Virus record (IMG/VR): IMGVR_UViG_3300047480_000545
Span: 62,001-126,000 of that record
DNA length: 64,000 nucleotides
Source: a virus
Strand: one strand, 5' to 3'
This document shows, in pieces, positions 28,859 to 64,000 of this stretch. The stretch's first letter is position 1; every line of letters begins with the position of its first letter. Under the pieces are notes generated by a model. That model was not told the origin of the DNA. It was given only the letters and a program-made list of their open reading frames with translations, and made no database searches. The translations under genes and the position numbers were made by a program.

Positions 28859-29890
28859 ATGCGAGACGCACTCGTTTTTATCGGTCGGTTCCAGCCGTTT
28901 CACAATGGACACAAAGCAGTTATTGATGCTGCACTTGAACAAGCACATGAAGTTGTTGTAGTCGTAGGTTCCAGCTTCGCTGCTCGTAATATCCGAAATC
29001 CATTTACATTCCAAGAACGCAAGGCTATGATTGAAGCCGTGTATCCGCCAGGTAAGACTGAACGCACGACTCGTGTGAAGGTCGTTCCTGTGTCAGATTA
29101 CCCATATGACGACAACAAATGGGTCAACGCCATTCAAAAGATTGTTGATGCTACTGTCCCGAATGCACAAGATGTTGGTCTGATTGGCCATTCAAAAGAC
29201 AGCACTAGCTACTACCTGAACATCTTTCCACGTTGGAAGAATCATATTGAAGTTGATGATGTTGGTGGTATCAACGCAACTGACATTCGTAAATCTTTGT
29301 TTGAAGTTAATAGTAACACGCTAGAGAATCTCAAAACTTTGATGCCTGATGCTGCTAGAAGCAGGATGCTTGACATTTTTCTATCTGCATCTGCTCAGTG
29401 GAAAGTTATTGAGCAAGAATACAACATGGTCAAGAAGTATAAAGAAGCATGGAAGGCTGCACCTTTCCCGCCCACTTTTATGACCGTAGACGCCGTTGTA
29501 GTGCAGTCTGGACACATCCTACTGGTCAAGCGTGGTGACATGCCTGGCAAGGGCCAATGGGCGCTCCCTGGCGGTTTCCTGAACCAAGATGAGACTATGC
29601 TGGATGGTGCCATTCGTGAACTGAAAGAAGAAACCAAAATCAAGGTTCCTGTCCCAGTGCTGAAAGGTTCTATCAAGGGTTCCAAGACTTTTGATGCTCC
29701 TAATCGTTCGTCTCGTGGTCGCACCATTACCCAAGCATTTCACATTGATTTGGGCGTTGGTGAACTGCCGAAAGTGAAAGGTTCGGATGATGCCGAAAAA
29801 GCGTTCTGGGTTCCGTTCAAAGACGTGAAGCAAGAAAAGATGTTTGAAGATCACTTCCACATCATCGACAACTTTATCAACATTGGGTGA
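28859..29890 (+). CDS. nadM: bifunctional NMN adenylyltransferase / Nudix hydrolase
   Basis: A 343-residue fusion. Residues 1-170: NadM-type adenylyltransferase with GRFQPFHNGH (9-18), IGHSKDSTSYYL and INATDIRKSLFE (ISSTxIR-like). Residues about 205-343: Nudix domain with box GGFLNQDETMLDGAIRELKEET. It would make NAD from NMN and ATP; the Nudix half may cleave ADP-ribose or toxic dinucleotides. It works with NAMPT at 30283. Confidence 0.93.
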   Translation: MRDALVFIGRFQPFHNGHKAVIDAALEQAHEVVVVVGSSFAARNIRNPFTFQERKAMIEAVYPPGKTERTTRVKVVPVSDYPYDDNKWVNAIQKIVDATVPNAQDVGLIGHSKDSTSYYLNIFPRWKNHIEVDDVGGINATDIRKSLFEVNSNTLENLKTLMPDAARSRMLDIFLSASAQWKVIEQEYNMVKKYKEAWKAAPFPPTFMTVDAVVVQSGHILLVKRGDMPGKGQWALPGGFLNQDETMLDGAIRELKEETKIKVPVPVLKGSIKGSKTFDAPNRSSRGRTITQAFHIDLGVGELPKVKGSDDAEKAFWVPFKDVKQEKMFEDHFHIIDNFINIG

Positions 29891-29895
29891 GCAAA

Positions 29896-30198
29896 ATGAA
29901 GATTCTTGAAGCGGGAAAAAACGGAAAAAATACTTGGTCACTGCAACATCGATGCACTGGATGGGGCAATGGCGAAAATGGATGCGAAGCATTGCTTGAA
30001 CTTGAGTTCGATGACCTTCGTTATTATCAGGGAACTGGTGAGGGGTGGGGTATATTTACAAAAGAACCAGCCGTATCATTCAAGTGTCCATGCTGCGGCA
30101 AACTAACTGATATTGGGCTAAATGATTGGCCTGTTGGGTATCGTGAATTGCCAAGGTGGACAAAAGAATGGCAAGAATCCAGACCAGCCGCTGCATAA
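29896..30198 (+). CDS. hypothetical zinc-binding protein (100 aa)
   Basis: Two cysteine pairs, RCTGWGNGENGCEA and KCPCCGKLTD, plausible zinc ligands. Start ATG 29896; a GTG at 29887 is possible. Lies between the two NAD salvage genes, so a link to that pathway is possible but unproven. Confidence 0.65.
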   Translation: MKILEAGKNGKNTWSLQHRCTGWGNGENGCEALLELEFDDLRYYQGTGEGWGIFTKEPAVSFKCPCCGKLTDIGLNDWPVGYRELPRWTKEWQESRPAAA

Positions 30199-30202
30199 CC
30201 TA

Positions 30203-30233
30203 TTGACATTATCACAATGACGTGGTAATGTCA
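30203..30233 (+). promoter_or_regulatory. promoter inside a dyad, NAMPT gene
   Basis: TTGACA, 17 bases, TAATGT. The -35 and -10 lie in opposite arms of a 12-base inverted repeat (TGACATTATCAC / GTGGTAATGTCA, one G-T mismatch), a plausible repressor operator or RNA stem. Confidence 0.65.
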
Positions 30234-30239
30234 TCAAGT

Positions 30240-30282
30240 CCAAACAGAGAGTTTGGCAATCTAACAATAGAGGAGTTCTATT
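30240..30282 (+). promoter_or_regulatory. double-hairpin leader of NAMPT gene
   Basis: Hairpin A: CCAAAC-AGAGA-GTTTGG. Hairpin B: AATAGA-GGAGT-TCTATT (30266-30282), directly abutting the ATG, with the ribosome binding site GGAG in the loop. Loops AGAGA and GGAGT are identical to the NMNAT leader. Confidence 0.72.
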
Positions 30283-31701
30283 ATGAAAAGCAATCTACTA
30301 CTAAATACCGACAGCTACAAAGCGTCAATGTTCGTTCAATACCCTGAAAATACAGAAACTGTATTCAGCTACATTGAAAGCCGTGGCGGAAAATACAATG
30401 AACTTGTGTTCTTCGGACTACAAGCGTTCATCAAAGAGTATCTGCTTGAACCAATCACGATGGCAGATGTGGATGAAGCAGAAGAAATCTGGACTGGCCA
30501 TGGGGAACCATTCAATCGTGAAGGTTGGGAATACATCGTCAAGGAACTTGGCGGGAAACTTCCTATTCGCATCAAAGCTGCGCCCGAAGGGACTGTGATT
30601 CCTGTTCACAACGCAATGGTTACTGTTGAAAACACCGATCCAAAGTGTTTCTGGTTGACCACCTACTTGGAAACTGCATTGCTTCGTGCAATCTGGTATC
30701 CAACCACTGTTGCCACAACCAGCCGTGAAATCAAGAAAATCATTCAGAAGTTCATGGTTGAAACTGGCGGCGATCTTGCTGGACTCAACTTCAAACTACA
30801 CGACTTCGGTGCGCGAGGAACATCTTCGCATGAGTCTGCCACTCTTGGCGGCATGGCTCACTTGGTCAGCTTTATGGGGACTGACACTATTGCTGCTGTA
30901 GTTGGTGCAAAACGCTACTACAAAATGCCAATGGCAGGGTTCTCTATTCCTGCTGCTGAACATAGCACCATTACTTCTTGGGGTCGCGAAAACGAAGTCA
31001 AAGCATACAAAAATATGCTGAAACAGTTCGCTAAACCTGGGTCAATCCTTGCTGTTGTTTCTGACAGCTATGATATTTTCAACGCTGTTGAAAATCTATG
31101 GGGTGGTGAACTTCGCGAAGAAGTAATCAAGTCTGGCGCAACTCTTGTTGTCCGTCCCGACTCTGGTGACCCAGTTGAAGTTGTGACAAAAGTTGCAAAA
31201 CTGTTGGACAAAACTTTTGGTTCAACTGTAAACGCAAAAGGTTACAAACTTCTAAATCATGTTCGTATCATTCAAGGTGATGGCATCAATTCGGATAGTG
31301 TCAAAGCTATTCTTGAAAGCCTGAAAGCAAATGGTTTCTGTGCCGACAACGTTGCATTTGGTATGGGTGGCGCTCTACTTGGCGCTCCACAACGCGATGA
31401 CCAGAAGTTTGCGATGAAGTGTTCTGCTGCACTTGTGAATGGGGTTTGGGTTGATGTTTACAAAGACCCAATCACTGATAAAGGTAAACTTTCTAAGAAA
31501 GGTCGCCTTGAACTGGTTCACGAATGTGGAATTGGAAGCTGCGGGTTCCGAACCGTAGAAGAAAAGAACGCTCGTGAAGAAGACAAAGTTCTTCGGGTTG
31601 TATATGAAAACGGTGACCTTCTTCTTGAAGATACGTTTGAAGCAATCCGTGAACGTGCGGTTGTGAACCCTGAAACTGAAATGGTGTCTCGCTATGAGTG
31701 A
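30283..31701 (+). CDS. nadV: nicotinamide phosphoribosyltransferase
   Basis: A 472-residue NAMPT, usual length. Conserved pieces: NTDSYKASMFVQYP, LHDFGARGTSSHESA, PAAEHSTITSWG (contains the phospho-acceptor His), VVRPDSGDP, FGMGGALL. It condenses nicotinamide with PRPP to NMN. Together with NMNAT at 28859 it forms the two-step salvage route, which could rebuild NAD when host defences deplete it. Strong hairpin-presented ribosome binding site. Confidence 0.95.
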   Translation: MKSNLLLNTDSYKASMFVQYPENTETVFSYIESRGGKYNELVFFGLQAFIKEYLLEPITMADVDEAEEIWTGHGEPFNREGWEYIVKELGGKLPIRIKAAPEGTVIPVHNAMVTVENTDPKCFWLTTYLETALLRAIWYPTTVATTSREIKKIIQKFMVETGGDLAGLNFKLHDFGARGTSSHESATLGGMAHLVSFMGTDTIAAVVGAKRYYKMPMAGFSIPAAEHSTITSWGRENEVKAYKNMLKQFAKPGSILAVVSDSYDIFNAVENLWGGELREEVIKSGATLVVRPDSGDPVEVVTKVAKLLDKTFGSTVNAKGYKLLNHVRIIQGDGINSDSVKAILESLKANGFCADNVAFGMGGALLGAPQRDDQKFAMKCSAALVNGVWVDVYKDPITDKGKLSKKGRLELVHECGIGSCGFRTVEEKNAREEDKVLRVVYENGDLLLEDTFEAIRERAVVNPETEMVSRYE

Positions 31702-35991: not shown

Positions 35992-37119
35992 ATGAAATAT
36001 AAGTTCCCTGAAATCCGCACTATCAATGACGTGTTGCCTCATATTGAGGGCCGTGACGAGTTCATCGTTGCCGACAAGGGCGACTACACTGTCATCAACT
36101 ATGCTGTGTCTATGATTGACACGTTTGACATGGATGGTCCCGAAGACCTTGGTGGTGCTATTCGTCGTGAATGTCGCGGCTTGATCTTTGACAAAGAAGG
36201 CAAACTGATTTCTCGTCCGTTTCATAAGTTCTTCAACGTGAATGAACGTCCTGAAACGCAATCCAACGAGATTGATATTTCTGCTCCGCATACCATCATG
36301 GAAAAGATGGATGGTTCTATGATTCGTCCAGTTCCCCTGAATGGTTCGTTCCGTCTTGGCACCAAGATGGGGGTGACTGATATTGCAGAAGATGCAGAAA
36401 AGTTGCTGAACGAAGAACGGATTCAGTTCATTGAAATCATGATTGCCGACAACAAAACTCCTATCTTTGAGTATGTTGCTCCCGACAATCAGATTGTGTT
36501 GCCGTATGAAACCGCAGACTTGGTTCTGTTGGCTATTCGTGACAACTTGACTGGCGAATACGTTCCGTTCAATCGTCATGTTCCCTTCAATGTGGTTCCT
36601 GTCTATGGTTCGGTAAACGAATCGCTGTCGGACTACATTGCCAAGGCTCGTGAGCGTGAAAACCGCGAGGGCGACATCATTCGTTTTGCTGATGGTCATA
36701 TGATCAAAATCAAAAACGACTGGTATGTTCGTATTCACAAGACTTTGGACCGTGTGACGTTTGACCGTAACATCGTTGCTCTCATTCTGAATGAGGAAAT
36801 CGATGATGCTGTTGGTCTGCTGCCCAATGCTACGAAAGAACGCATTGAGAAGTTTGAACAGCGGTTTGCTGAACGTTTGCATGCGCTGATTGAAGGTTAT
36901 GATCGGTATTACAACACTGTTGTAGCTTCTGGTCTTGACCGTAAGCGTTATGCTCAAGAATGGATGCCTACGATTCAGAAGAATGACTCGTTTGCTCCGC
37001 AGTATGTGTTTGGTCGTTTCGTCGGCAAAGACGGTCGTGAAATGATCTTGAAGCACATTGAAAAGCACCTGACCACCAACACTCGGTGGGATGAGTGTGC
37101 CGTGTGGATGGGGATGTAA
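35992..37119 (+). CDS. rnlA: T4 RNA ligase 1-type enzyme
   Basis: A 375-residue Rnl1 (T4: 374). Nucleotidyl-transferase motif I is EK105MDGSM, an upstream RRECRGLIFD, motif IIIa-IV region PIFEYVAPDNQIVLPY, motif V EGDIIRFADGHMIKIKNDWY with the two lysines. It seals 5'-phosphate to 3'-OH RNA ends; T4 uses it with polynucleotide kinase to repair tRNAs cut by host anticodon nuclease. It fits the many tRNAs here. Codon choice is CTG/TTG/CTT-rich for leucine, unlike the tail genes. Confidence 0.93.
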   Translation: MKYKFPEIRTINDVLPHIEGRDEFIVADKGDYTVINYAVSMIDTFDMDGPEDLGGAIRRECRGLIFDKEGKLISRPFHKFFNVNERPETQSNEIDISAPHTIMEKMDGSMIRPVPLNGSFRLGTKMGVTDIAEDAEKLLNEERIQFIEIMIADNKTPIFEYVAPDNQIVLPYETADLVLLAIRDNLTGEYVPFNRHVPFNVVPVYGSVNESLSDYIAKARERENREGDIIRFADGHMIKIKNDWYVRIHKTLDRVTFDRNIVALILNEEIDDAVGLLPNATKERIEKFEQRFAERLHALIEGYDRYYNTVVASGLDRKRYAQEWMPTIQKNDSFAPQYVFGRFVGKDGREMILKHIEKHLTTNTRWDECAVWMGM

Positions 37120-56967: not shown

Positions 56968-57090
56968 AGGAAGTCCGATAAGGCAATAAAGATCGGGCGG
57001 CATCTGGTTACTCTTTGTGATACTGGTATGCTGACATTTTGGGAAAAATCTCTCCCGCTGGTGGCCGAACCAGATACCTGAAAAAAGTTC

Positions 57091-57119
57091 TTGACGAATC
57101 AAACAGAGTTTGGTAAGTT
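57091..57119 (+). promoter_or_regulatory. rRNA-like promoter P1
   Basis: GTTC-TTGACG, 17 bases, TAAGTT-AAGAA. First of three tandem promoters sharing A-rich upstream sequence and AGTTCTTGAC. Confidence 0.75.
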
Positions 57120-57185
57120 AAGAATATCGCGGAAGGGCTAAGGCTAGTAACCAGAAGCAGCCGTGAAAAAAAAGAAAAAAAGTTC

Positions 57186-57214
57186 TTGACAAAGAAAACA
57201 AAGTTTGCTAAGTT
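57186..57214 (+). promoter_or_regulatory. rRNA-like promoter P2
   Basis: A-tract, AGTTCTTGACA, 17 bases, TAAGTTAAGAAC; nearly a copy of P1 about 95 bases downstream. Confidence 0.78.
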
Positions 57215-57287
57215 AAGAACATAGAGCGGGACACAAAGGAACGATGCTCGGAACTGAAACGCGGACGAAAAAAGTTGAAAAGAGTTC

Positions 57288-57316
57288 TTGACAACGAAAA
57301 ACGAACGTGATATAAG
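57288..57316 (+). promoter_or_regulatory. rRNA-like promoter P3
   Basis: AGTTCTTGACA, 17 bases, TATAAG; nearest to the boxA. Confidence 0.8.
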
Positions 57317-57343
57317 AAACAAGTAATCGGAACGGTGTTCCAC

Positions 57344-57359
57344 GCTCTTTGAAAATTTA
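57344..57359 (+). promoter_or_regulatory. boxA-like antitermination site
   Basis: GCTCTTTGAAAATTTA closely matches the boxA of bacterial rRNA leaders (E. coli TGCTCTTTAACA; alphaproteobacteria GCTCTTTGACA). It lies about 28 bases after P3, the usual place. Confidence 0.72.
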
Positions 57360-57439
57360 CGATGCTGGCCTAGCGAAAGCGATGATGGCTTGAAAACAAG
57401 ATCAGGCGGGGTGATAAACCTGTAAGACCTGATTGCACA

Positions 57440-57517
57440 AAATCTGTTTTCACATACACACTTGGCACACTAGCCTTTACGGGTTGGAAAGTGTTGTGTG
57501 TAGCTGAAAACAGATAT
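57440..57517 (+). ncRNA. long processing-type stem before tRNA-Met
   Basis: ATCTGTTTTCA pairs perfectly with TGAAAACAGAT, extended by ACACACTT/AAGTGTTGTGT: a stem of about 20 pairs ending one base before the tRNA. It resembles RNase III processing stems of rRNA operons. A smaller stem ATCAGG/CCTGAT lies just upstream. Confidence 0.65.
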
Positions 57518-57594
57518 GGGGGATTAGCTCAATTGGTCAGAGTTGCCCGCTCATAACGGGTCGGTTGGGGGTTCAAGTCCCTCATCCCCTACCA
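57518..57594 (+). tRNA. tRNA-Met/Ile2 (CAT)
   Basis: Acceptor GGGGGAT with ATCCCCT (terminal G-T), anticodon stem GCCCG/CGGGT with loop CTCATAA (anticodon CAT), T arm GGGGG-TTCAAGT-CCCTC, CCA encoded. Elongator Met or Ile (lysidine) cannot be separated from sequence alone. Confidence 0.9.
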
Positions 57595-57611
57595 AAATAC
57601 TAGCGCAGTAT

Positions 57612-57619
57612 GATAAATA
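57612..57619 (+). promoter_or_regulatory. T4-type late promoter
   Basis: GATAAATA inside GTAT/ATAC, before the structured element and tRNA-Asn. Confidence 0.55.
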
Positions 57620-57621
57620 CG

Positions 57622-57692
57622 TAAGACGCAAGAATCTCGGTCCTGCTACGGCATATAGCAGTTAAATCGTCCTCCTGCGTTGGGATAGAGCC
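57622..57692 (+). ncRNA. repeated structured RNA element, copy 1
   Basis: TCGGTCCTGCTA...TAGCAGTTAAATCG...TAGAGCCA, with outer stem ACGCA/TGCGT. Copy 2 at 57850 shares TCGGTCCTG, CAGTTAAATCG and TAGAGCCA, while the stem changes from CTGCTA/TAGCAG to CTGAC/GTCAG, a covarying helix. Confidence 0.6.
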
Positions 57693-57703
57693 AAAAACTA
57701 TGT

Positions 57704-57779
57704 TTCCAGTTAGCTCAGTTGGTAGAGCGTCTGACTGTTAATCAGAATGTCGCAGGTTCGAGCCCTGCACTGGGAGCCA
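57704..57779 (+). tRNA. tRNA-Asn(GTT)
   Basis: Acceptor TTCCAGT with ACTGGGA, anticodon stem TCTGA/TCAGA with loop CTGTTAA (anticodon GTT), T loop TTCGAGC, discriminator G, CCA encoded. Confidence 0.93.
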
Positions 57780-57849
57780 AATACCCCCACTATCGGGGAT
57801 GATAATAGATAGTAACGGAAGCGTTACTTGTAATGACGTTTCCACCCTA

Positions 57850-57910
57850 TTTCGGTCCTGACAATAACCCTAGTCAGTTAAATCGCACGGGGCGATGCGT
57901 GTAGAGCCAA
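57850..57910 (+). ncRNA. repeated structured RNA element, copy 2
   Basis: TCGGTCCTGAC...GTCAGTTAAATCG...TAGAGCCAAC. It is followed by TTTCCAG (57919), which pairs with CTGGAAA at about 58002, giving a further closed domain. Confidence 0.6.
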
Positions 57911-58030
57911 CCACAAGTTTCCAGTCTTAGTTGCCACAATCTCTCAGTTCAAAGCTGTTGTGATGTAAAGCAATGTCCAATATGGCTTGCTTCTAAGGTA
58001 GCTGGAAAGCCAATACAGTCGTCTCTGAAT

Positions 58031-58038
58031 GATAAATA
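58031..58038 (+). promoter_or_regulatory. T4-type late promoter in hairpin
   Basis: GATAAATA in the loop of GTCTC-TGA / TCA-GCG-GAGAC (58021-58055). The 3' arm contains GGAG, the ribosome binding site of the 58063 gene. Confidence 0.8.
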
Positions 58039-58062
58039 CTATTATCAGCGGAGACTTGATTG

Positions 58063-58443
58063 ATGAAAATACGTGACATAATATCTGAATCTTTGGCAAA
58101 CAAAGAATACTTCAAAGCAGGGGATGTATCTGACCAAATGAAAGATGCGTTACCTGATATGGTTGCCTTCAAGCAACTCCGTAGCACTGACCCATATGTT
58201 CAATATAGAATGGGTGTTGCATTTGCTGCGGCTGCTGCATCCAAAGATAAATCTAATCCGCATAAGTTTGATCAAGAATCTGCGTATGCCGAAAACATGT
58301 TAGCTGTTGCGTATACTGATGCCGAAATGGAAATCATTACAATGGCTGCAAAGCTATTGAATGTTGAAGTTACTAAACTTACAAACGGCAAGAGCAAAGA
58401 AAAATCGGATGTCTTTTCTGACAGTCCTGTTCCAAAAAAATAA
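58063..58443 (+). CDS. hypothetical late protein (126 aa)
   Basis: Begins MKIRDIISESLANKEYFKAG, then YRMGVAFAAAAASKD and AVAYTDAEMEIITMAAKLLNVE; the YGxxxAxA...VAYTxAExEII pattern is shared with small, probably virion-associated proteins of marine T4-like phages. Only protein gene inside the RNA region between 56.7 and 59.8 kb. Confidence 0.7.
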   Translation: MKIRDIISESLANKEYFKAGDVSDQMKDALPDMVAFKQLRSTDPYVQYRMGVAFAAAAASKDKSNPHKFDQESAYAENMLAVAYTDAEMEIITMAAKLLNVEVTKLTNGKSKEKSDVFSDSPVPKK

Positions 58444-58452
58444 AAAAAGTCC

Positions 58453-58481
58453 TTGACTCTTCTTCGGAATTGAGTTAGGAT
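58453..58481 (+). promoter_or_regulatory. promoter of the large structured RNA
   Basis: A-tract then TTGACT, 17 bases, TAGGAT; the style (AAAAAAAGTCCTTGAC) resembles the rRNA-like promoters upstream. Confidence 0.65.
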
Positions 58482-58487
58482 GTAGAG

Positions 58488-59641
58488 ATTGGGCGGTATA
58501 GCGTCCATAAGGGTAAGCGTAGTAATACGCCCAAAGCAAGGTTTCCTATAAACTTGCGCCAGTGATGGTCCATCTATACAAGCCTGAACCAGACTTGACT
58601 CGGATTAAACCGAAAGCAAGTCCCGTCTGTAGAGAGGCGGTAGGTAGTAAGTTAGGAGAACTGTCTGAAAGGATAGCCACAGAGCCAGTCGGTGAGTGGT
58701 AAGAGGATTGGCGTCCGAACAGTTTTCAGCCAAACTAACGAATACTGAAGGTTAACAGGTAGCTACACTGTCTGACCCTGCAAGGAAAGGCGTAGTAGCA
58801 TCTTGAGAGTGGAAGGGTTAGGCCCCGGATACTTGAAAAGACGTTGAGTAGCCCGCAAGGCAAAAGACAGTCGGTGTGTTGTATACTGTATCTAACAAGG
58901 TATGGTGCAACTGAGGTAGCACATCGAAATAGGTTCGCAATATTGCATAATGGTAATGCAGTCTCCTTCTAAGAGAACGATTGTAGGTTCAACTCCTATT
59001 ATTGAAACAAAAGCGAAAGACTACCTCGGTATACTGTGAAAGATGCGTAATACCATACTCGCAAGAGAATATGGTTCACTGAAACTCGCAAGGTGGACGT
59101 GATTATTCGGACAGAAGACGTAAGGGTTTAGCGACCTTGAACAGCCCGCAAGGCTGGCGGAAGATGGAAGGATGAATAGCAGTATGCGACGAGAGAAATG
59201 CCACTCTCTAACAAAGGCCGCATTGAGTGATACAAGATGATCGGAAACGACTCTTGTGGATAAAGGTAGAACCATCCTCGCAAGGGATTGGGTAATGACC
59301 GAAGGCACTCACCTCAAGGTATAATCTCAGCCTTGACAAAATGAAATCACATTTTGACGATACATTGAGTTCCTACCGCCAACGGGGTTTATCTTGGTTG
59401 GATTGGAAAGACGCGCAGAACACTATATGGTTAGACGGTAGACTACTCGCAAGAGCCTCTATTGTGGTCGTATAGGACTTGAAATCAATGTATCCTCTGA
59501 GTGTGGCAGTAACACCGCGAAGTAATGCGAGGTGGTATCCAAATGAACCGTGGAGGTCAAACGCTTCCGACAATAGCTTGGGATTTCATTACTTACCATA
59601 ATGAATACCGAGCAACGATAGGGTAAACACTCATTCATATT
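58488..59641 (+). ncRNA. giant ornate non-coding RNA with embedded tRNA-like module
   Basis: About 1,150 bases with no plus-strand gene but dense hairpins. Examples: GGGCG/CGCCC (58491/58528), GCAAG/CTTGC (58536/58553), GACTTG/CAAGTC (58592/58617), GAGGTAG/CTACCTC (58913/59021), ACCATA-CTC-GCAA-GAG-TATGGT (59052-59075), CAGCC-CGCAA-GGCTG (59142-59156), ACAAGA-TCG-GAAA-CGA-TCTTGT (59232-59257). Many hairpins end in GCAA or GAAA tetraloops. The size, tetraloops, tRNA-array context and enclosed tRNA-like unit resemble GOLLD and ROOL RNAs of phages; class membership is not established. Confidence 0.75.
58936..59008 (+). tRNA. degenerate tRNA-Arg(TCT)-like module inside the large RNA
   Basis: D arm TGCA-TAATGGTAA-TGCA, anticodon stem TCTC/GAGA with loop CTTCTAA (anticodon TCT), T arm GTAGG-TTCAACT-CCTAT. 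The acceptor has only 5 good pairs (CAATA/TATTG) and no CCA. It is enclosed by GAGGTAG/CTACCTC. May be structural rather than a working tRNA. Confidence 0.6.
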
Positions 59642-59718
59642 GGCCCTGTAGCTCAGTTGGTTAGAGCGGCAGTCCCTAAAACTATTGGTCGTGGGTTCGA
59701 GTCCCACTAGGGCCACCA
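59642..59718 (+). tRNA. suppressor-like tRNA, anticodon CTA
   Basis: Acceptor GGCCCTG with TAGGGCC, D arm GCTC/GAGC, T arm GTGGG-TTCGAGT-CCCAC, CCA encoded. Anticodon stem GCAGT/ACTAT has one mismatch; loop CCCTAAA gives anticodon CTA, which reads the amber codon UAG. Position 33 is C instead of the usual T. Variable loop of 5 bases rules out tRNA-Leu(TAA). The loop resembles a tRNA-Trp loop (CTCCAAA) with two changes. Confidence 0.75.
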
Positions 59719-59729
59719 AATAAAGCGAA

Positions 59730-59815
59730 AAAGGGTTTGTAGTAGCGAGTAGGAACCTGAAACCCTGCGGCTAACGCCAATACCCATTTAGATCGTCAGT
59801 AACCTACTCAATCAG
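59730..59815 (+). ncRNA. structured spacer RNA
   Basis: GAGTAGG (59746) pairs with CCTACTC (59802) around a segment containing CATTTAGATCGTCAGTAACC. A related string (GCATTTAGATTGCGAAGTAACC) occurs at 62077. Confidence 0.45.
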
Positions 59816-59827
59816 AAAGGATAAACT

Positions 59828-60088
59828 ATGTAGATTGAAAAAACAAAAGTCAACGAGTTAGTATTTCACTTCAACAAAAAACATCTTGAAGACCCGACTA
59901 TTCCAATGTGGGTGGTTAAAGCAAAAGGTCAAACCTTTTATGTTAATCATGTCATATCAGAAGTAGGGTGGTCTACTAAGGAAACACCTGACAACCCGCA
60001 CACAAAAGGTGCGATTAAAATCAAGAACTGTTACCTTAGTATTACAGAGTCCAATGAGGCTTTGATTCAAAATGGAGAAGACAAATGA
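59828..60088 (+). CDS. phage protein with in-frame amber at codon 2
   Basis: AGAAAGGATAAACT places a good ribosome binding site before ATG 59828, but codon 2 is TAG. The frame then stays open: IEKTKVNELVFHFNKKHLED, then PMWVVKAKGQTFYVNHV, GWSTKETPDNPHTKG and a C-terminal strand region. The 25 residues before the internal ATG (59906) look coding, and that ATG has no ribosome binding site. Full length would be 86 codons. The CTA tRNA ends 109 bases upstream. Alternatives: sequencing error, or initiation at ATT 59834. Confidence 0.65.
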
Positions 60089-60780
60089 ATATTGACGAAA
60101 CCAAAATCAAACTGCAACATAGAAAAGAGTTCTTGGAAAAATCAATCAAAGAACTCAAAAAAGATAGAAGCGGCTATTACAAAACTGGTCACAAATACCA
60201 ACGCGAACATGGACACAAACTTGGAAGTGATAACAAAGGTGGCCATTACCTTGCTAAGTTAGGTATAAGACACGAAGGTGTAGCTGCTTACCTGAATAAT
60301 AAACCTCACTATCTTGCACAAGAATATAGATCGTTGACGATTGCGTTAGCATTTCTACAAGGAAAAAGATTTGACAAGATTGAAAAGTTTTGGTATAATC
60401 TGTCAATATCAGACTTACTCAGAAAGAAATATGTAACTTGTTCCGACTGCGGAAAGTCTTACTATTCCGTATACGGCGAAAGATACGGAAGACAAGAACA
60501 CGCAATCAATCAAGCAAAGTTCTTGTTGGGTATGTTTAGATACGAACCAGTTCAGAGTATGTTTAGTAACAAGTTTTCGCACAACAAGATTGTGTATGAA
60601 AACGATGAAGAGTTCAATGAGTGGATTAAAGTAACGAGTAAACACTTTTTTAATGAGGATTTAAGCCCGATTTCCCTCACTTATGAAAATAAGTTGAATA
60701 GAGATTCCCTGGCTGGTAAAGACTTAAATCCAATAGTTCAGTGGACCAAAGAAAAGAATACAGGGAGTGAAAGCCCGTAA
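60085..60780 (+). CDS. hypothetical protein with Cys pair (231 aa)
   Basis: Basic, Lys/Tyr/His-rich: KSIKELKKDRSGYYKTGHKYQREHGHKLG, and a VTCSDCGKSYYS motif (possible half zinc site). ATGA overlap with the 59828 gene, with GGAGAAGACA as ribosome binding site. Unknown; RNA binding is conceivable by charge. Confidence 0.68.
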   Translation: MNIDETKIKLQHRKEFLEKSIKELKKDRSGYYKTGHKYQREHGHKLGSDNKGGHYLAKLGIRHEGVAAYLNNKPHYLAQEYRSLTIALAFLQGKRFDKIEKFWYNLSISDLLRKKYVTCSDCGKSYYSVYGERYGRQEHAINQAKFLLGMFRYEPVQSMFSNKFSHNKIVYENDEEFNEWIKVTSKHFFNEDLSPISLTYENKLNRDSLAGKDLNPIVQWTKEKNTGSESP

Positions 60781-60850
60781 CTGTGAACTGTATTTTTGCC
60801 GTAAGGATTCGGGAAGTCTGAAGCCGAGACTCGTGTGCTCAAACCTGACG

Positions 60851-60869
60851 GAGTGGTGGAATGCCACTC
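60851..60869 (+). promoter_or_regulatory. hairpin before 60891 gene
   Basis: GAGTGG-TGGAATG-CCACTC stem-loop in the leader of the small gene. Role unknown. Confidence 0.45.
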
Positions 60870-60890
60870 ATATTAACTTTAGAGGAAACA

Positions 60891-61067
60891 ATGGCAGAAG
60901 TAACAAACAAAGTAGAAGATATGTCTATTGCCTTCGCAGACAATGGATATATCATTGAATATCGTGGATACGATGACAATGAAGAATGGGCATCTGCTAA
61001 GGTAGTTGTTCTTTCACTTGAAGAAGCACTTGAAGTCATTCGTGACGTAGCAACCAACAAACGCTAA
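60891..61067 (+). CDS. hypothetical acidic protein (58 aa)
   Basis: Small alpha/beta protein (MSIAFADNGYIIEYRGYDDN; SLEEALEVIRDVATNKR). TAGAGGAAACA precedes the ATG. Resembles short conserved proteins of T4-like cyanophages; unknown. Confidence 0.65.
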   Translation: MAEVTNKVEDMSIAFADNGYIIEYRGYDDNEEWASAKVVVLSLEEALEVIRDVATNKR

Positions 61068-61074
61068 ACCGTTT

Positions 61075-61148
61075 GGCCGATTGGTATATGGGTATTACAC
61101 TTGGCTGTCTACCAGGTAAAACGGGTTCGAGTCCCGTATCGGTCGCCA
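61075..61148 (+). tRNA. tRNA-Asp(GTC)
   Basis: Acceptor GGCCGAT with ATCGGTC, anticodon stem CTTGG/CCAGG with loop CTGTCTA (anticodon GTC), T arm ACGGG-TTCGAGT-CCCGT, discriminator G, CCA encoded. Confidence 0.93.
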
Positions 61149-61155
61149 TATTTTC

Positions 61156-61390
61156 TTGCTTTTGTAAAAGCAAGTGGTGGAGTGGCTTTTGAAGCCCCAA
61201 GTTTGTCCAAACTCTAAATGGACACCTATTTAGATTAGACAGTGATATAATCTCCCCTTGTGAGGGAAGACCGTGCGATCCTCTGCACTTGTGTATGATT
61301 TACGTTAAAGCTGCAAACAGCCCTGTCTATAACAACACTTCATACACAGTCAAACGTTTCCGAGGGAAATAGTAGCTGCATGTCACTGTA
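61156..61390 (+). ncRNA. structured intergenic RNA
   Basis: No gene. Contains a perfect hairpin CTTGCTTTT-GT-AAAAGCAAG, then GTCC/GGAC, an extended -10-like TGATATAAT, and an 8-base stem GTGTATGA/TCATACAC closing about 60 bases. Likely a transcribed structured spacer before tRNA-Gln. Confidence 0.45.
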
Positions 61391-61397
61391 GTATTGT

Positions 61398-61473
61398 TGG
61401 GAAGTAGCTCAATTGGTAGAGTAGCGGACTTTGAATCCGTTGGTTGGTGGTTCGAACCCACCCTTCCCAGCCA
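61398..61473 (+). tRNA. tRNA-Gln(TTG)
   Basis: Acceptor TGGGAAG with CTTCCCA, anticodon stem GCGGA/TCCGT with loop CTTTGAA (anticodon TTG), T arm GGTGG-TTCGAAC-CCACC, discriminator G, CCA encoded. Confidence 0.93.
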
Positions 61474-61492
61474 ACAAAAAATAACTTTTTAT

Positions 61493-61569
61493 CTGGGTAT
61501 GGCTCAGTCTGGTAGAGTGCCGCACTTGGACTGCGGAGGCCGTAGGTTCAAATCCTACTACCCAGACCA
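61493..61569 (+). tRNA. tRNA-Pro(TGG), first copy, atypical
   Basis: Acceptor CTGGGTA with TACCCAG, anticodon stem CCGCA/TGCGG with loop CTTGGAC (anticodon TGG, but A at position 37 where tRNA-Pro has G), T loop TTCAAAT, CCA encoded. Confidence 0.88.
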
Positions 61570-61579
61570 GATTTAGTTC

Positions 61580-61608
61580 TTGACAGAGAACATTTATTGT
61601 AGTATATT
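61580..61608 (+). promoter_or_regulatory. promoter with dyad over the -10
   Basis: TTGACA, 17 bases, TATATT. A perfect 9+9 inverted repeat ATTGTAGTA-TAT-TACTACAAT (61596-61616) covers the -10. Confidence 0.72.
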
Positions 61609-61622
61609 ACTACAATAATCAA

Positions 61623-61699
61623 CGGGGTGTAGCACAGTCTGGTAGTGCGCTCGGTTTGGGTCCGAGAGGTCAAGGGTTCGAATCCTTTTACCCCGACCA
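61623..61699 (+). tRNA. tRNA-Pro(TGG), second copy
   Basis: Acceptor CGGGGTG with TACCCCG, anticodon stem CTCGG/CCGAG with loop TTTGGGT (anticodon TGG, G37 as expected for Pro), T loop TTCGAAT, CCA encoded. Confidence 0.93.
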
Positions 61700-61747
61700 T
61701 TTATGGAGCAGTTGTCGGTCTGCGTCACCAAACACCGTCAAAACACT

Positions 61748-61821
61748 GCGGGTATGGTGTAGGGGTAACATGCGAGATTTCCAATCTCTTGTCGTCGGTT
61801 CGATCCCGACTATCCGCTCCA
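61748..61821 (+). tRNA. tRNA-Gly(TCC), first copy
   Basis: Acceptor GCGGGTA with TATCCGC, anticodon loop TTTCCAA (anticodon TCC), T loop TTCGATC, discriminator T, CCA encoded. Confidence 0.92.
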
Positions 61822-61824
61822 ATA

Positions 61825-61972
61825 ATCTAGATTCTTGCTGATGAAACACATAAGAGACATGGGCGAGACTTGCCGTTGGGCTAACTTGGAAAGATAATAG
61901 ACGCTGGTTGCCGCTAAATATATGCAGTCAATCTTCTGTTTGCTCTGGGGGTGAAAAGATCGGGTCTAGATA
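61825..61972 (+). ncRNA. structured spacer RNA
   Basis: ATCTAGA at 61825 can pair with TCTAGAT at 61964, closing about 150 bases that contain GGC-GAGACTT-GCC and TGGTTGCCGC. No gene. Might be a tRNA-like or new small RNA. Confidence 0.4.
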
Positions 61973-61982
61973 TAAGTTTTAT

Positions 61983-62056
61983 GCGGGTGTTGTGTAATGG
62001 TAAGACCTTAGCCTTCCAAGCTAATGACACGGGTTCGATTCCCGTCACCCGCTCCA
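61983..62056 (+). tRNA. tRNA-Gly(TCC), second copy
   Basis: Acceptor GCGGGTG with CACCCGC, anticodon stem TTAGC/GCTAA with loop CTTCCAA (anticodon TCC), T arm ACGGG-TTCGATT-CCCGT, CCA encoded. Confidence 0.93.
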
Positions 62057-62149
62057 ATATAGACAATGTTAGTAGCATTTAGATTGCGAAGTAACCTCTT
62101 GTTATGGTTTTCGGTAGAGCCTAAACCGTGTTTGATGTGAGAGGATAAT

Positions 62150-62416
62150 ATGAAAACACTATCAGAAAAAGAAGAGTTCTACATGAAATGCAGTGAGATA
62201 CTAAACATTCCACATGAGTTTCATGAACCAGTAAGAAGAAGAACAAGATGGAACGCCAGATTCAATGGCAATGGTAGATTTCCAAACTTTGGATTAGTTC
62301 AATGTTTTGGTTCATCGGTAAGAGTGATAAGTAAGAGTGGAACAAAAGTTTTCAAGACTTACGAAGAAACTTACGAATACTTGAAAAAAGTTGTTGACAA
62401 AATTACCGATTCTTGA
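62150..62416 (+). CDS. hypothetical basic protein (88 aa)
   Basis: Arg/Asn-rich middle (PVRRRTRWNARFNGNGRFPNFG) and beta/helix end (SGTKVFKTYEETYEYLKKV). AGAGGATAAT precedes the ATG. Small basic proteins between tRNA genes may be RNA-associated. Unknown. Confidence 0.65.
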   Translation: MKTLSEKEEFYMKCSEILNIPHEFHEPVRRRTRWNARFNGNGRFPNFGLVQCFGSSVRVISKSGTKVFKTYEETYEYLKKVVDKITDS

Positions 62417-62423
62417 TATAAAA

Positions 62424-62431
62424 GATAAATA
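62424..62431 (+). promoter_or_regulatory. T4-type late promoter
   Basis: GATAAATA, 19 bases before tRNA-Thr. Confidence 0.65.
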
Positions 62432-62450
62432 AGTATGTGAAGTTCATTGT

Positions 62451-62526
<76 letters not shown>

Positions 62527-62539
62527 TCAACTTCACAAT

Positions 62540-62624
62540 GCGGGTATGGCGAAATTGGTAGACGCACCAGATTTAGGTTCTGGCACCGTAAGGTGTGGGG
62601 GTTCAAGTCCCTCTACCCGCACCA
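62540..62624 (+). tRNA. tRNA-Leu(TAG), standard form
   Basis: Acceptor GCGGGTA with TACCCGC, D arm as in bacterial tRNA-Leu, anticodon stem CCAGA/TCTGG with loop TTTAGGT (anticodon TAG), normal variable arm (CACCGTAAGGTGT), CCA encoded. It reads CTA, the dominant leucine codon of the fibre genes. Confidence 0.94.
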
Positions 62625-62638
62625 AAATATAGAGGAAA

Positions 62639-62661
62639 GAGCGATTGAATATCGCTTTTTT
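62639..62661 (+). terminator. terminator before homing nuclease gene
   Basis: AGCGAT-TGAAT-ATCGCT then TTTTTT; overlaps the start of the late promoter. Confidence 0.78.
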
Positions 62662-62669
62662 GATAAATA
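62662..62669 (+). promoter_or_regulatory. T4-type late promoter, leaderless spacing
   Basis: GATAAATA, five bases (ATAGT), then ATG 62675. In T4, late transcripts start about 6 bases after this motif, so the mRNA would begin at the ATG. Confidence 0.75.
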
Positions 62670-62674
62670 ATAGT

Positions 62675-63151
62675 ATGAACAACGGAAAATATCATACTGA
62701 ACAATACAAGGCTTTACAAGAAGCTAAAAACGATAAACGCTTTGGTCCCATTATAGACCACATAAAAATATGTGAATGCTGTAACAACTCATATATTTGG
62801 AATGGTAGAGAAAAGACAAAAGCATATAAAAATGCACGTTTTTGTTCTCGCAGTTGCGCGAACAATCGTAAAACTTGGTGGGTTGACAACGCGGTGAGTT
62901 ACAGAACTATCGCATTCAATCACTGGAAGCAAGAATGTGCTATATGTGGATTTGATAAAATAGTGTCTATTCATCACATAGATGAAAATCACGAAAATAA
63001 CAATCCAACAAATCTAATACCATTGTGTCCAAATCATCATGAAATGGTTCACAGTAAATGGAAAAACGAGGTTATACCGACAATAGCAGAGTTGGTAAAA
63101 AATAAATGGGGAATTGGTGAAATCGGGATCACGCAAGATTTGCACTCTTGA
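62675..63151 (+). CDS. HNH endonuclease, likely homing, overlapping tRNA-Ala
   Basis: A 158-residue protein with an N-terminal zinc ribbon (CECCNNSYIW and RFCSRSCANN) and a C-terminal HNH domain (CAICGFDKIVSIHHIDENHENNNPTNLIPLCPNHHEMVH). Typical of mobile nucleases inserted in phage tRNA arrays. Its last 44 bases are the 5' half of tRNA-Ala, so the protein ends with residues encoded by the tRNA gene. No ribosome binding site is visible. Confidence 0.87.
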   Translation: MNNGKYHTEQYKALQEAKNDKRFGPIIDHIKICECCNNSYIWNGREKTKAYKNARFCSRSCANNRKTWWVDNAVSYRTIAFNHWKQECAICGFDKIVSIHHIDENHENNNPTNLIPLCPNHHEMVHSKWKNEVIPTIAELVKNKWGIGEIGITQDLHS

Positions 63152-63182
63152 ATCAGGGGTTCGAACCCCCTATTCTCCACCA
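63108..63182 (+). tRNA. tRNA-Ala(TGC), overlapped by nuclease gene
   Basis: Acceptor GGGGAAT with ATTCTCC, D arm GTGA/TCAC, anticodon stem CAAGA/TCTTG with loop TTTGCAC (anticodon TGC), T arm AGGGG-TTCGAAC-CCCCT, CCA encoded. Confidence 0.92.
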
Positions 63183-63238
63183 ATATCAAAGTGTCCTTTA
63201 TGGACTTCGAATTTGTATATGCCAGTATGCAAATCTAT

Positions 63239-63313
63239 GCGGGTGTAGCTCAGTGGTAGAGCCTTTCGTTGCCAACGAAAATGTCGTGAGTTCGAATCTC
63301 ATCGCCCGCTCCA
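63239..63313 (+). tRNA. tRNA-Gly(GCC)
   Basis: Acceptor GCGGGTG with CGCCCGC, anticodon stem TTTCG/CGAAA with loop TTGCCAA (anticodon GCC), T loop TTCGAAT, discriminator T, CCA encoded. Confidence 0.93.
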
Positions 63314-63395
63314 AAATCCTAGCATATGATTTGAATATGCCATTCGGGTAACATACTTCCCGTTGAAAAAAACACAAAAGTCACTGGAATAATAA

Positions 63396-64000
63396 TTGCA
63401 TTATGATTTTATAGAAGTAGGAACATCAGACTTTGACACGTTGTGCGAAATAAGCAGCGATGAAATTTATGGAATATCCATAGAAGCAGTTGGTGAATAT
63501 GTAGACGTTCTTCCAAACAAAAAAAATGTCAAAAAAGTTCATGCGGCAATGGTCCCAAATGAACTCTTAAAAACAGAAAATAATGTAAAAATTTACTATG
63601 TCAAGTCAGAAGTTATAGAAAAAGAAAAGTTGCGTCTTTTTTTAAAAGGATGTAACAAAATTGGAAGCCCTCACGACTTTCATTATTTCTATACTGATGA
63701 TTTCCAAACACATTTAAACAATCAAACGAAAGCTAACAAAAAAAAGCTAATACCAGTATATGGTAGAAATCTTCTTAAAGAAGGATTGGTTACATGTGAG
63801 GATGTTAAATGCATATCATGGAAAGTATTGTTTGACACATATGACGTGACCTCTGTAGACTATGTAAAAATTGATGCAGAAGGCGCTGATTCAGAACTCA
63901 TTGTAGATTTGATGAAAGAATGTAATAAGCGAGGCGGTGTTTACCCAAAGTTTATTAGATTTGAGACAGGTTCGTCGGGAAATCAAACTCATAATTTAGA
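63396..64000 (+). CDS. FkbM-like SAM methyltransferase, 3' end outside window
   Basis: Frame open to the window end. The only start before an upstream TAA (63393) is TTG 63396, with GGAATAA upstream. It reads (M)HYDFIEVGTSDFDTL (SAM-binding motif I) and later VDYVKIDAEGADSELI, the signature of FkbM methyltransferases, which O-methylate sugars or lipids. The middle GRNLL...CISWKVL fits too. Virion-surface or host glycan modification is possible. Confidence 0.8.
   Translation, partial: MHYDFIEVGTSDFDTLCEISSDEIYGISIEAVGEYVDVLPNKKNVKKVHAAMVPNELLKTENNVKIYYVKSEVIEKEKLRLFLKGCNKIGSPHDFHYFYTDDFQTHLNNQTKANKKKLIPVYGRNLLKEGLVTCEDVKCISWKVLFDTYDVTSVDYVKIDAEGADSELIVDLMKECNKRGGVYPKFIRFETGSSGNQTHNL

What the first reader, a model, noticed from the sequence alone, without database searches (positions are those of the whole stretch)
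58453..59718. Giant ornate RNA (about 1.15 kb) with an enclosed tRNA-like unit, possible new relative of GOLLD/ROOL
A non-coding stretch with its own rRNA-style promoter contains well over a dozen perfect hairpins, many capped with GCAA or GAAA tetraloops, and long-range helices. One of these (GAGGTAG/CTACCTC, reinforced by GTATAC/GTATAC outside it) encloses a degenerate tRNA-Arg(TCT)-like module. The RNA ends at a tRNA whose processing would define its 3' end. GOLLD and ROOL are large phage RNAs found near tRNA arrays, and some are known to form RNA-only assemblies. That this RNA belongs to them is inference; it may be a separate class.
Basis: partly seen in the sequence, partly recalled or inferred. 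Interest (0 to 1): 0.9.

Follow-up and report, generated by a model that had tools for sequence, protein, structure and literature searches.

The report
GOLLD RNA enclosing a tRNA-like module
This stretch of an uncultured phage encodes a GOLLD RNA, a known giant RNA whose characterised member builds hollow RNA cages; the tRNA inside it has lost its amino-acid end yet keeps the tRNA shape, and comparison with dozens of relatives suggests it is a permanent built-in part and not a working tRNA.

Summary
The RNA is real and is a GOLLD, not a new class. Rfam RF02032 matches 58871-59333 over its full length (193.3 bits, cut-off 150, E 5.9e-53). Conservation with relatives puts the gene at about 58488-59333 (846 nt). 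The 308 nt after it are not GOLLD: they hold a separate 127-nt element that lies upstream of GOLLD in relatives. The "enclosed tRNA-like unit" is the interesting part. tRNAs in GOLLD linkers are already reported (Kretsch 2025; Behra 2019 calls one a pseudo-tRNA). Across 103 relatives (77 clusters) these modules have specifically lost the outer acceptor pairs and the CCA: a full 7-bp acceptor in 2/55 against 594/689 free tRNAs of the same contigs, CCA in 2/55 against 665/689. They keep the inner acceptor, D, anticodon and T stems with extensive compensatory change, inside a covarying 9-bp helix. Anticodons change at least 33 times on the tree. Two lineages instead carry circularly permuted tRNAs with intact acceptor and CCA. 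Best explanation: the module is tethered and not meant to be cut out, so the two GOLLD domains stay joined; its role inside the cage (filler, bait or ligand) is inference. New member of a known kind.

The parts
58453..58481 (+). promoter-like site TTGACT-17-TAGGAT
   Evidence: not above shuffles by itself; GOLLD conservation begins about 7 nt after it; similar sites directly before GOLLD in L204 and L215
58488..58870 (+). GOLLD 5' domain
   Evidence: homologous over its length to dozens of viral contigs at 68-88% identity, matches starting at about 58488-58490; 66 of 90 alifold pairs with compensatory change
58871..59333 (+). GOLLD region covered by Rfam RF02032 (end of 5' region, linker with tRNA-like module, conserved 3' domain up to AAGGTATAATCTCAGCCT)
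   Evidence: 193.3 bits, model 1-416 of 416
58911..58919 (+). 5' strand CTGAGGTAG of the helix that encloses the linker
   Evidence: helix 1
59021..59029 (+). 3' strand CTACCTCGG of the enclosing helix
   Evidence: helix 1: 97.6% paired, 7 of 9 pairs with compensatory change
58936..59008 (+). tRNA-like module, Arg(TCT) anticodon loop CTTCTAA; acceptor only CAATA/TATTG (5 bp), pairs 1-2 mismatched, no CCA
   Evidence: ARAGORN; Rfam tRNA 46.3 bits; anatomy; covariation
59009..59333 (+). GOLLD conserved 3' domain (profile used to find relatives starts at 59010)
   Evidence: nhmmer; Rfam alignment
59334..59641 (+). structured stretch after GOLLD, not part of it; found whole only in two identical contigs (L063, L085)
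   Evidence: fold z-score -2.3
59505..59631 (+). element E, 127 nt, unassigned; upstream of GOLLD in six other contigs
59642..59718 (+). tRNA with CTA anticodon (called Pyl/suppressor), encoded CCA

Best explanation
The locus encodes a GOLLD RNA of about 846 nt in the tRNA array of an uncultured phage (record of 203 kb). By homology to the solved GOLLD (14-mer cage, linker inside) it most likely folds into a 5' cap domain and a 3' ring domain that assemble into a hollow RNA cage. In this lineage the linker between the domains is not disordered filler but a compact tRNA-shaped module, held by a 9-bp helix. The module descends from a tRNA but no longer translates: the acceptor is cut to 4-6 bp, there is no CCA, and the anticodon drifts. 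Most likely it has been made unfit for excision by tRNA-processing enzymes (RNase P at the 5' end, 3' tRNase or RNase E after CCA), because excision would separate the two GOLLD domains. It therefore stays tethered in the cage lumen and presents a tRNA elbow and anticodon arm there, as a compact filler or as bait or ligand for something that recognises tRNA bodies. Shown by sequence comparison: membership, anatomy, specific loss of the acceptor end, selection on the remaining stems. Inferred: cage formation by this member, resistance to processing, position in the lumen, and the partner.
For: Rfam RF02032 193.3 bits; relatives MD18, DSS3_MAL1 and DSS3P8 pass the cut-off too. Of 55 distinct linker modules in 103 relatives, acceptor pairs 1/2/3 can form in 36/16/34 but pairs 4/5/6/7 in 55/53/53/55; all 7 pairs in 2/55 against 594/689 free tRNAs of the same contigs (Fisher 1e-38); CCA 2/55 against 665/689 (1e-59). 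In 47 of 48 contigs with both kinds the module has fewer acceptor pairs than the median free tRNA; anticodon loops of 6 or 8 nt in 10/55 against 1/689. Covariation on a sequence-only alignment of 52: whole structure 0.537 against 0.185 shuffled, 88.0% of cells paired against at most 48.2% with partners slid; D 96.6, anticodon 91.9, T 90.4, outer acceptor 43.1% paired. At least 33 anticodon changes on a tree of the 3' domain. The phage has a separate tRNA-Arg(TCT) gene (L504:10539-10615), so the module is not needed for decoding. Two GOLLDs carry circularly permuted tRNAs with 7/7 acceptor pairs and CCA, opened at the variable loop: there, cutting at the acceptor would not separate the GOLLD domains, as the tethering idea predicts. 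[quoted passage not shown] pseudo-tRNA inside a mycobacterial GOLLD, GOLLD detected by Northern but no expression of the pseudo-tRNA (PMC6582537).
Against: No expression or biochemical data for this phage. The modules of L055 (7 bp, ACCA), L402 (7 bp, no CCA) and L453 (5 bp, ACCA) are wholly or partly intact and unpermuted; L055 in particular is not predicted by the tethering idea. Ten of 77 clusters have a linker that is not a tRNA (short or two-hairpin), and GOLLDs of another group (L014, L018, L038 and others, 308-329 bits) show no linker tRNA, so a tRNA shape is not essential for GOLLD. Loss of CCA and outer pairs could also follow simply from lack of use. Cage formation was shown for a different GOLLD (env-38) with a 42-nt disordered linker.
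Confidence: 0.6

Rival explanations
1. Neutral filler: the linker accepts any compact, self-folding insert; tRNA genes from the surrounding array are captured again and again, and only the fold matters because it keeps the lumen strand tidy. No partner binds it.
For: Linker type changes at least 10 times on the tree, with two-hairpin and short linkers also present; anticodon unconstrained; tRNA arrays surround the gene.
Against: 62 of the 74 clusters with a readable linker keep a tRNA shape, including GG in the D loop and a TTCRA-type T loop, and paired stems with many compensatory changes: more than compactness needs.
Confidence: 0.3
2. Bait or decoy for host tRNA-targeting defences (anticodon nucleases and similar): the module offers an uncharged tRNA body with a changing anticodon loop.
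For: Anticodon loops vary widely while the stems are kept; the window encodes a T4 Rnl1-type RNA ligase (PF09511 90.6 bits), and the GOLLD-bearing phage MAL1 has an RlaP RNA-repair gene close by; published proposal that phage tRNAs answer host tRNases (PMC10264068).
Against: No nuclease specificity was tested; some tRNA nucleases also need features outside the loop; a cage wall would hide a bait unless the cage opens.
Confidence: 0.15
3. Working tRNA: GOLLD is an elaborate leader or carrier from which an intact tRNA is released.
For: ARAGORN and Rfam call it a tRNA; L055 has a full acceptor and CCA.
Against: 53 of 55 modules lack a full acceptor and 53 of 55 lack CCA while 665 of 689 free tRNAs in the same contigs encode it; anticodon loops of 6 or 8 nt; a free tRNA-Arg(TCT) exists in the same phage.
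Confidence: 0.04
4. Not GOLLD but a new large-RNA class.
For: The 5' domain is outside the Rfam model and was not compared with the published 5' domains.
Against: Full-length model match with E 5.9e-53 and conserved 3' end; same order, size (846 against 833 nt for env-38) and tRNA-array setting as published GOLLDs.
Confidence: 0.02

Closest known systems
GOLLD RNA (Rfam RF02032; cryo-EM of env-38, Kretsch et al. 2025, PMC12286853)
   Same: Full-length covariance-model match; conserved 3' domain; total length (846 against 833 nt); phage tRNA array; linker between 5' and 3' domains
   Different: The linker holds a 73-nt tRNA-like module inside a covarying helix, where env-38 has a disordered 42-nt linker; the match (193 bits) is weaker than for the other group fetched here (308-329 bits)
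Mycobacterial GOLLD with pseudo-tRNA (Behra et al. 2019, PMC6582537)
   Same: A degenerate tRNA inside a GOLLD gene in a tRNA cluster
   Different: There one case named as a pseudogene; here dozens of phage copies with the same specific loss of the acceptor end and retained, covarying stems
Roseophages MD18, DSS3_MAL1, DSS3P8
   Same: GOLLD in a tRNA array; MD18 and MAL1 with an acceptor-less tRNA-Arg(TCT)-like linker; DSS3P8 without
   Different: About 58-64% identity in the 3' domain; a phage tmRNA lies just downstream, none found in this window
ROOL RNA
   Same: Large cage-forming phage RNA near tRNA islands (literature)
   Different: No Rfam ROOL match in the window

Membership tests
GOLLD (RF02032) | Covariance-model match above the curated cut-off (150 bits) | tested here: met
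   193.3 bits, positions 1-416 of 416, E 5.9e-53
GOLLD (RF02032) | Conserved 3' domain ending in the GUAAUCUCA loop | tested here: met
   AAGGTATAATCTCAGCCT at the 3' end, posterior high; 103 relatives share the domain nearly full length
GOLLD (RF02032) | Separate, less conserved structured 5' domain; total often over 800 nt | tested here: met
   58488-58870 conserved and covarying; total 846 nt. Not aligned to the published 5' domain
GOLLD (RF02032) | Phage or prophage, near tRNA genes | tested here: met
   16 ARAGORN tRNA calls in the window and 23 more in the rest of the contig; phage proteins
GOLLD (RF02032) | Variable linker between the domains, sometimes with a tRNA | tested here: met
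   literature
GOLLD (RF02032) | 14-mer RNA-only cage; expression rising during lysis | not testable with these tools
   published for other members only
ROOL / HEARO | Match to the Rfam family | tested here: not met
   no match at gathering nor at E<=1 in 57000-63500
Functional tRNA (module 58936-59008) | 7-bp acceptor stem | tested here: not met
   5 bp, pairs 1-2 C-A and G-A
Functional tRNA (module 58936-59008) | Encoded CCA, as in most free tRNAs of these phages | tested here: not met
   sequence after the acceptor strand is ACAA; 665 of 689 free tRNAs have CCA. CCA could in principle be added by enzyme
Functional tRNA (module 58936-59008) | D, anticodon and T arms with elbow motifs | tested here: met

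The most novel reading that the evidence does not exclude
GOLLD cages in a large group of phages carry a dedicated, acceptor-less tRNA-shaped domain (about 14 copies per cage if they assemble like env-38) as a functional ligand or bait inside an RNA compartment. Some lineages reached the same end by circular permutation of the tRNA, which leaves a potentially chargeable CCA end free while the two GOLLD domains stay joined.
Probability: 0.3. Interest if true: 0.8.

Novelty: new member of a known kind. Interest (0 to 1): 0.5.

Why it matters
The function of GOLLD is unknown. Its cage is thought to enclose its own linker, so what the linker is bears directly on function. Here the linker is, in 62 sequence clusters, a tRNA-derived domain that has mostly given up exactly the part needed for charging and excision while its remaining stems are kept by compensatory change. 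That turns 'tRNAs are sometimes found in the linker' into a testable claim: the module is not excised, and something about a tRNA body inside the cage is useful. The permuted tRNAs give an independent test of the same idea.

Tried and rejected
Rejected: new RNA class; ROOL or HEARO; the RNA reaching to the tRNA at 59642; GTATAC/GTATAC as a helix; hairpin count as evidence (fold z-score of the whole RNA only -1.6); a tmRNA in 59334-59641 (ARAGORN, Rfam, none); the module as the phage's only tRNA-Arg(TCT). Several DNA patterns for relatives returned many chance matches, so relatives were accepted only on a profile match to the 3' domain. The first comparison of 29 modules was repeated on 55 with the same result. 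Caveats: ARAGORN favours paired acceptors, so its bias runs against the loss reported; relatives are related by descent, so Fisher p-values overstate independence.

Full report
WHERE. The window is bases 62001-126000 of a 202,706-base virus record. Proteins include tail and head proteins, an ATP-dependent protease, a T4 Rnl1-type RNA ligase and NAD-salvage enzymes, so it is a large tailed phage. Its tRNAs lie in an array that runs through the window and its flanks.

WHAT IT IS. cmscan of the window gives RF02032 GOLLD at 58871-59333, 193.3 bits, full model; the phage record search repeats it. Phages MD18 and DSS3_MAL1, found by DNA similarity, give 169.6 and 160.5 bits, DSS3P8 150.7. From viral contigs I collected loci with short conserved motifs and kept those that match a profile of the 3' domain over nearly its full length: 103 loci, 77 clusters. 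The 5' domain is conserved in most near relatives and its matches start at window 58488-58490, just after the promoter-like site at 58453-58481. A MAFFT alignment of 31 of them folds into 90 pairs, 66 of them with at least one compensatory change. So the RNA is about 58488-59333, 846 nt; the solved GOLLD env-38 has 833 (PMC12286853).

WHAT IS NOT PART OF IT. 59334-59641 occurs whole only in two contigs identical to the window. Its second half, 59505-59631 (element E), occurs in L485, L342, L343, L499, L497 and L459 upstream of GOLLD, 22-170 nt before its start, and in L500 with no GOLLD in the fetched stretch. Where I read the flanks it sits between a leader and GOLLD, closed by a long stem such as ACTGTGTTTACA/TGTAAACACAGT. 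It is unassigned in Rfam.

THE ENCLOSED MODULE. ARAGORN reads 58936-59008 as tRNA-Arg(TCT) and Rfam scores it 46.3 bits, lowest of the window. Its acceptor is CAATA/TATTG; the two outer pairs are C-A and G-A; no CCA follows. I compared linker modules and free tRNAs of the same contigs with the same procedure: 55 distinct modules, pairs 1-7 formable in 36, 16, 34, 55, 53, 53, 55; 689 free tRNAs, 641, 675, 677, 680, 663, 660, 676. Full 7 bp: 2/55 against 594/689. CCA: 2/55 against 665/689. Anticodon loop not 7 nt: 10/55 against 1/689; U33 91% against 99%. So the loss is at one place, the end of the acceptor, and the inner stem is kept.

IS IT SELECTED? On a sequence-only alignment of 52 linkers I counted pairs of a structure taken from one relative (L480): enclosing helix 97.6% paired with 7 of 9 pairs changed on both sides somewhere; D arm 96.6%; anticodon arm 91.9%; T arm 90.4%; inner acceptor 75.9% (MAFFT shifts a base there); outer acceptor 43.1%, its middle pair formed in 4 of 42. 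Covariation score 0.537 against 0.185 in shuffles; sliding the partners by 1-3 columns drops pairing from 88% to 27-48%. On a tree of the 3' domain the anticodon changes at least 33 times over 24 forms, and linker type at least 10 times (62 clusters tRNA-like, 10 other, 2 permuted, 3 unreadable; quick tree, many forks weak). The phage has its own free tRNA-Arg(TCT). Hence a kept shape and a discarded decoding role.

PERMUTED tRNAs. In L196 and L282 the linker reads T arm (4770), 3' acceptor strand CTCCCCC with ACCA, 8 nt, 5' acceptor strand GGGGGAG (4806), D arm, anticodon arm. The minimum-energy fold in this order is a cloverleaf opened at the variable loop; put back into normal order ARAGORN reads tRNA-Lys(CTT). 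L196 is a GOLLD by Rfam, 198.8 bits. L008 and L042 show the same order with GATCCCG/CGGGATC and GCCA; their 3' domain matches the profile but L008 is not listed by Rfam at its cut-off. Put back into normal order, ARAGORN reads L008 as tRNA-Glu, while a full anticodon stem gives GTC, so its identity is unsure. A pattern scan over both strands of all fetched loci (8.7 Mb counted on both strands) found 7 such arrangements, 4 of them these (2 distinct); the other 3 are ordinary tRNAs followed by another tRNA. So the only two distinct permuted tRNAs found lie in GOLLD linkers.

HOW IT MAY WORK. The solved GOLLD places the linker inside the cage, with 5' and 3' regions as separate domains (PMC12286853). 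An ordinary tRNA in the linker would be expected to be excised, splitting the chain. Loss of the outer acceptor and CCA should prevent this; permutation at the variable loop should allow cutting without separation. Both states are seen; the intact, unpermuted L055 is an exception. Behra 2019 saw GOLLD but no pseudo-tRNA expression in M. aubagnense, which agrees. What the module does in the lumen is open: filler, bait for tRNA-targeting defences, or a ligand for a tRNA-binding protein or the ribosome (ribosome pull-down mentioned in PMC12286853).

WHAT WAS KNOWN. tRNAs in the GOLLD linker (Kretsch 2025), a pseudo-tRNA in one GOLLD and a predicted tRNA in the original description as cited by Behra 2019. 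I did not find the systematic acceptor loss, the anticodon drift or permuted linker tRNAs in the papers held, but the original description (Weinberg 2009) is not held, so priority is unproven.

Noticed in passing
L196:4770-4850 (also L282); L008:7623-7755 (also L042): Circularly permuted tRNAs, acceptor 7/7 paired and CCA encoded, inside the linker of GOLLD RNAs.
   Followed up: partly
window 57286-57360; L342, L343, L452, L461, L469, L485, L499, L500, L002, L003, L004, L064: rRNA-operon-like leaders: in most a TTGAC...TATAAT-type promoter, then a hairpin and a boxA-like GCTCTTTGANAATTT, before tRNA arrays or GOLLD, suggesting antitermination of these untranslated operons.
   Followed up: partly
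window 59505-59631: Element E, 127 nt, unassigned, downstream of GOLLD here and upstream of it in six other contigs, there closed by a long stem.
   Followed up: partly
L002:4714, L003:4546, L004:4635, L196:8196, L050, L014, L028, L041: Phage-encoded tmRNAs within a few hundred bases to a few kb of GOLLD in several phages.
   Followed up: no
L212:6440-6900 (also L224, L242, L249, L289): A GOLLD-like 5' domain joined almost directly to the last 60 nt of the 3' domain, without linker and most of the 3' domain: a possible mini-GOLLD.
   Followed up: no
window 59642-59718; also L250, L310: tRNA with CTA anticodon and, by my reading, C at position 33 in the window; TAG ends 1 of 32 long ORFs of the window. 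Possible amber suppression, not tested.
   Followed up: no
L459, L468, L450, L426, L425, L437, L191: GOLLD linkers that are not tRNAs: short, T-arm remnant only, or a two-hairpin module shared by L468 and L450.
   Followed up: no
window 35992-37119 and 28859-31701; L003:5912-6883: T4 Rnl1-type RNA ligase and a NAMPT/NMNAT-Nudix pair in this phage; an RlaP RNA-repair gene near GOLLD in DSS3_MAL1.
   Followed up: no
window 57600-58020: Non-coding stretches with similar sequence (CGGTCCTG...CAGTTAAATCG...TAGAGCCA) around 57640 and 57855 between tRNAs, and a tRNA-like remnant near 57918-58013.
   Followed up: no
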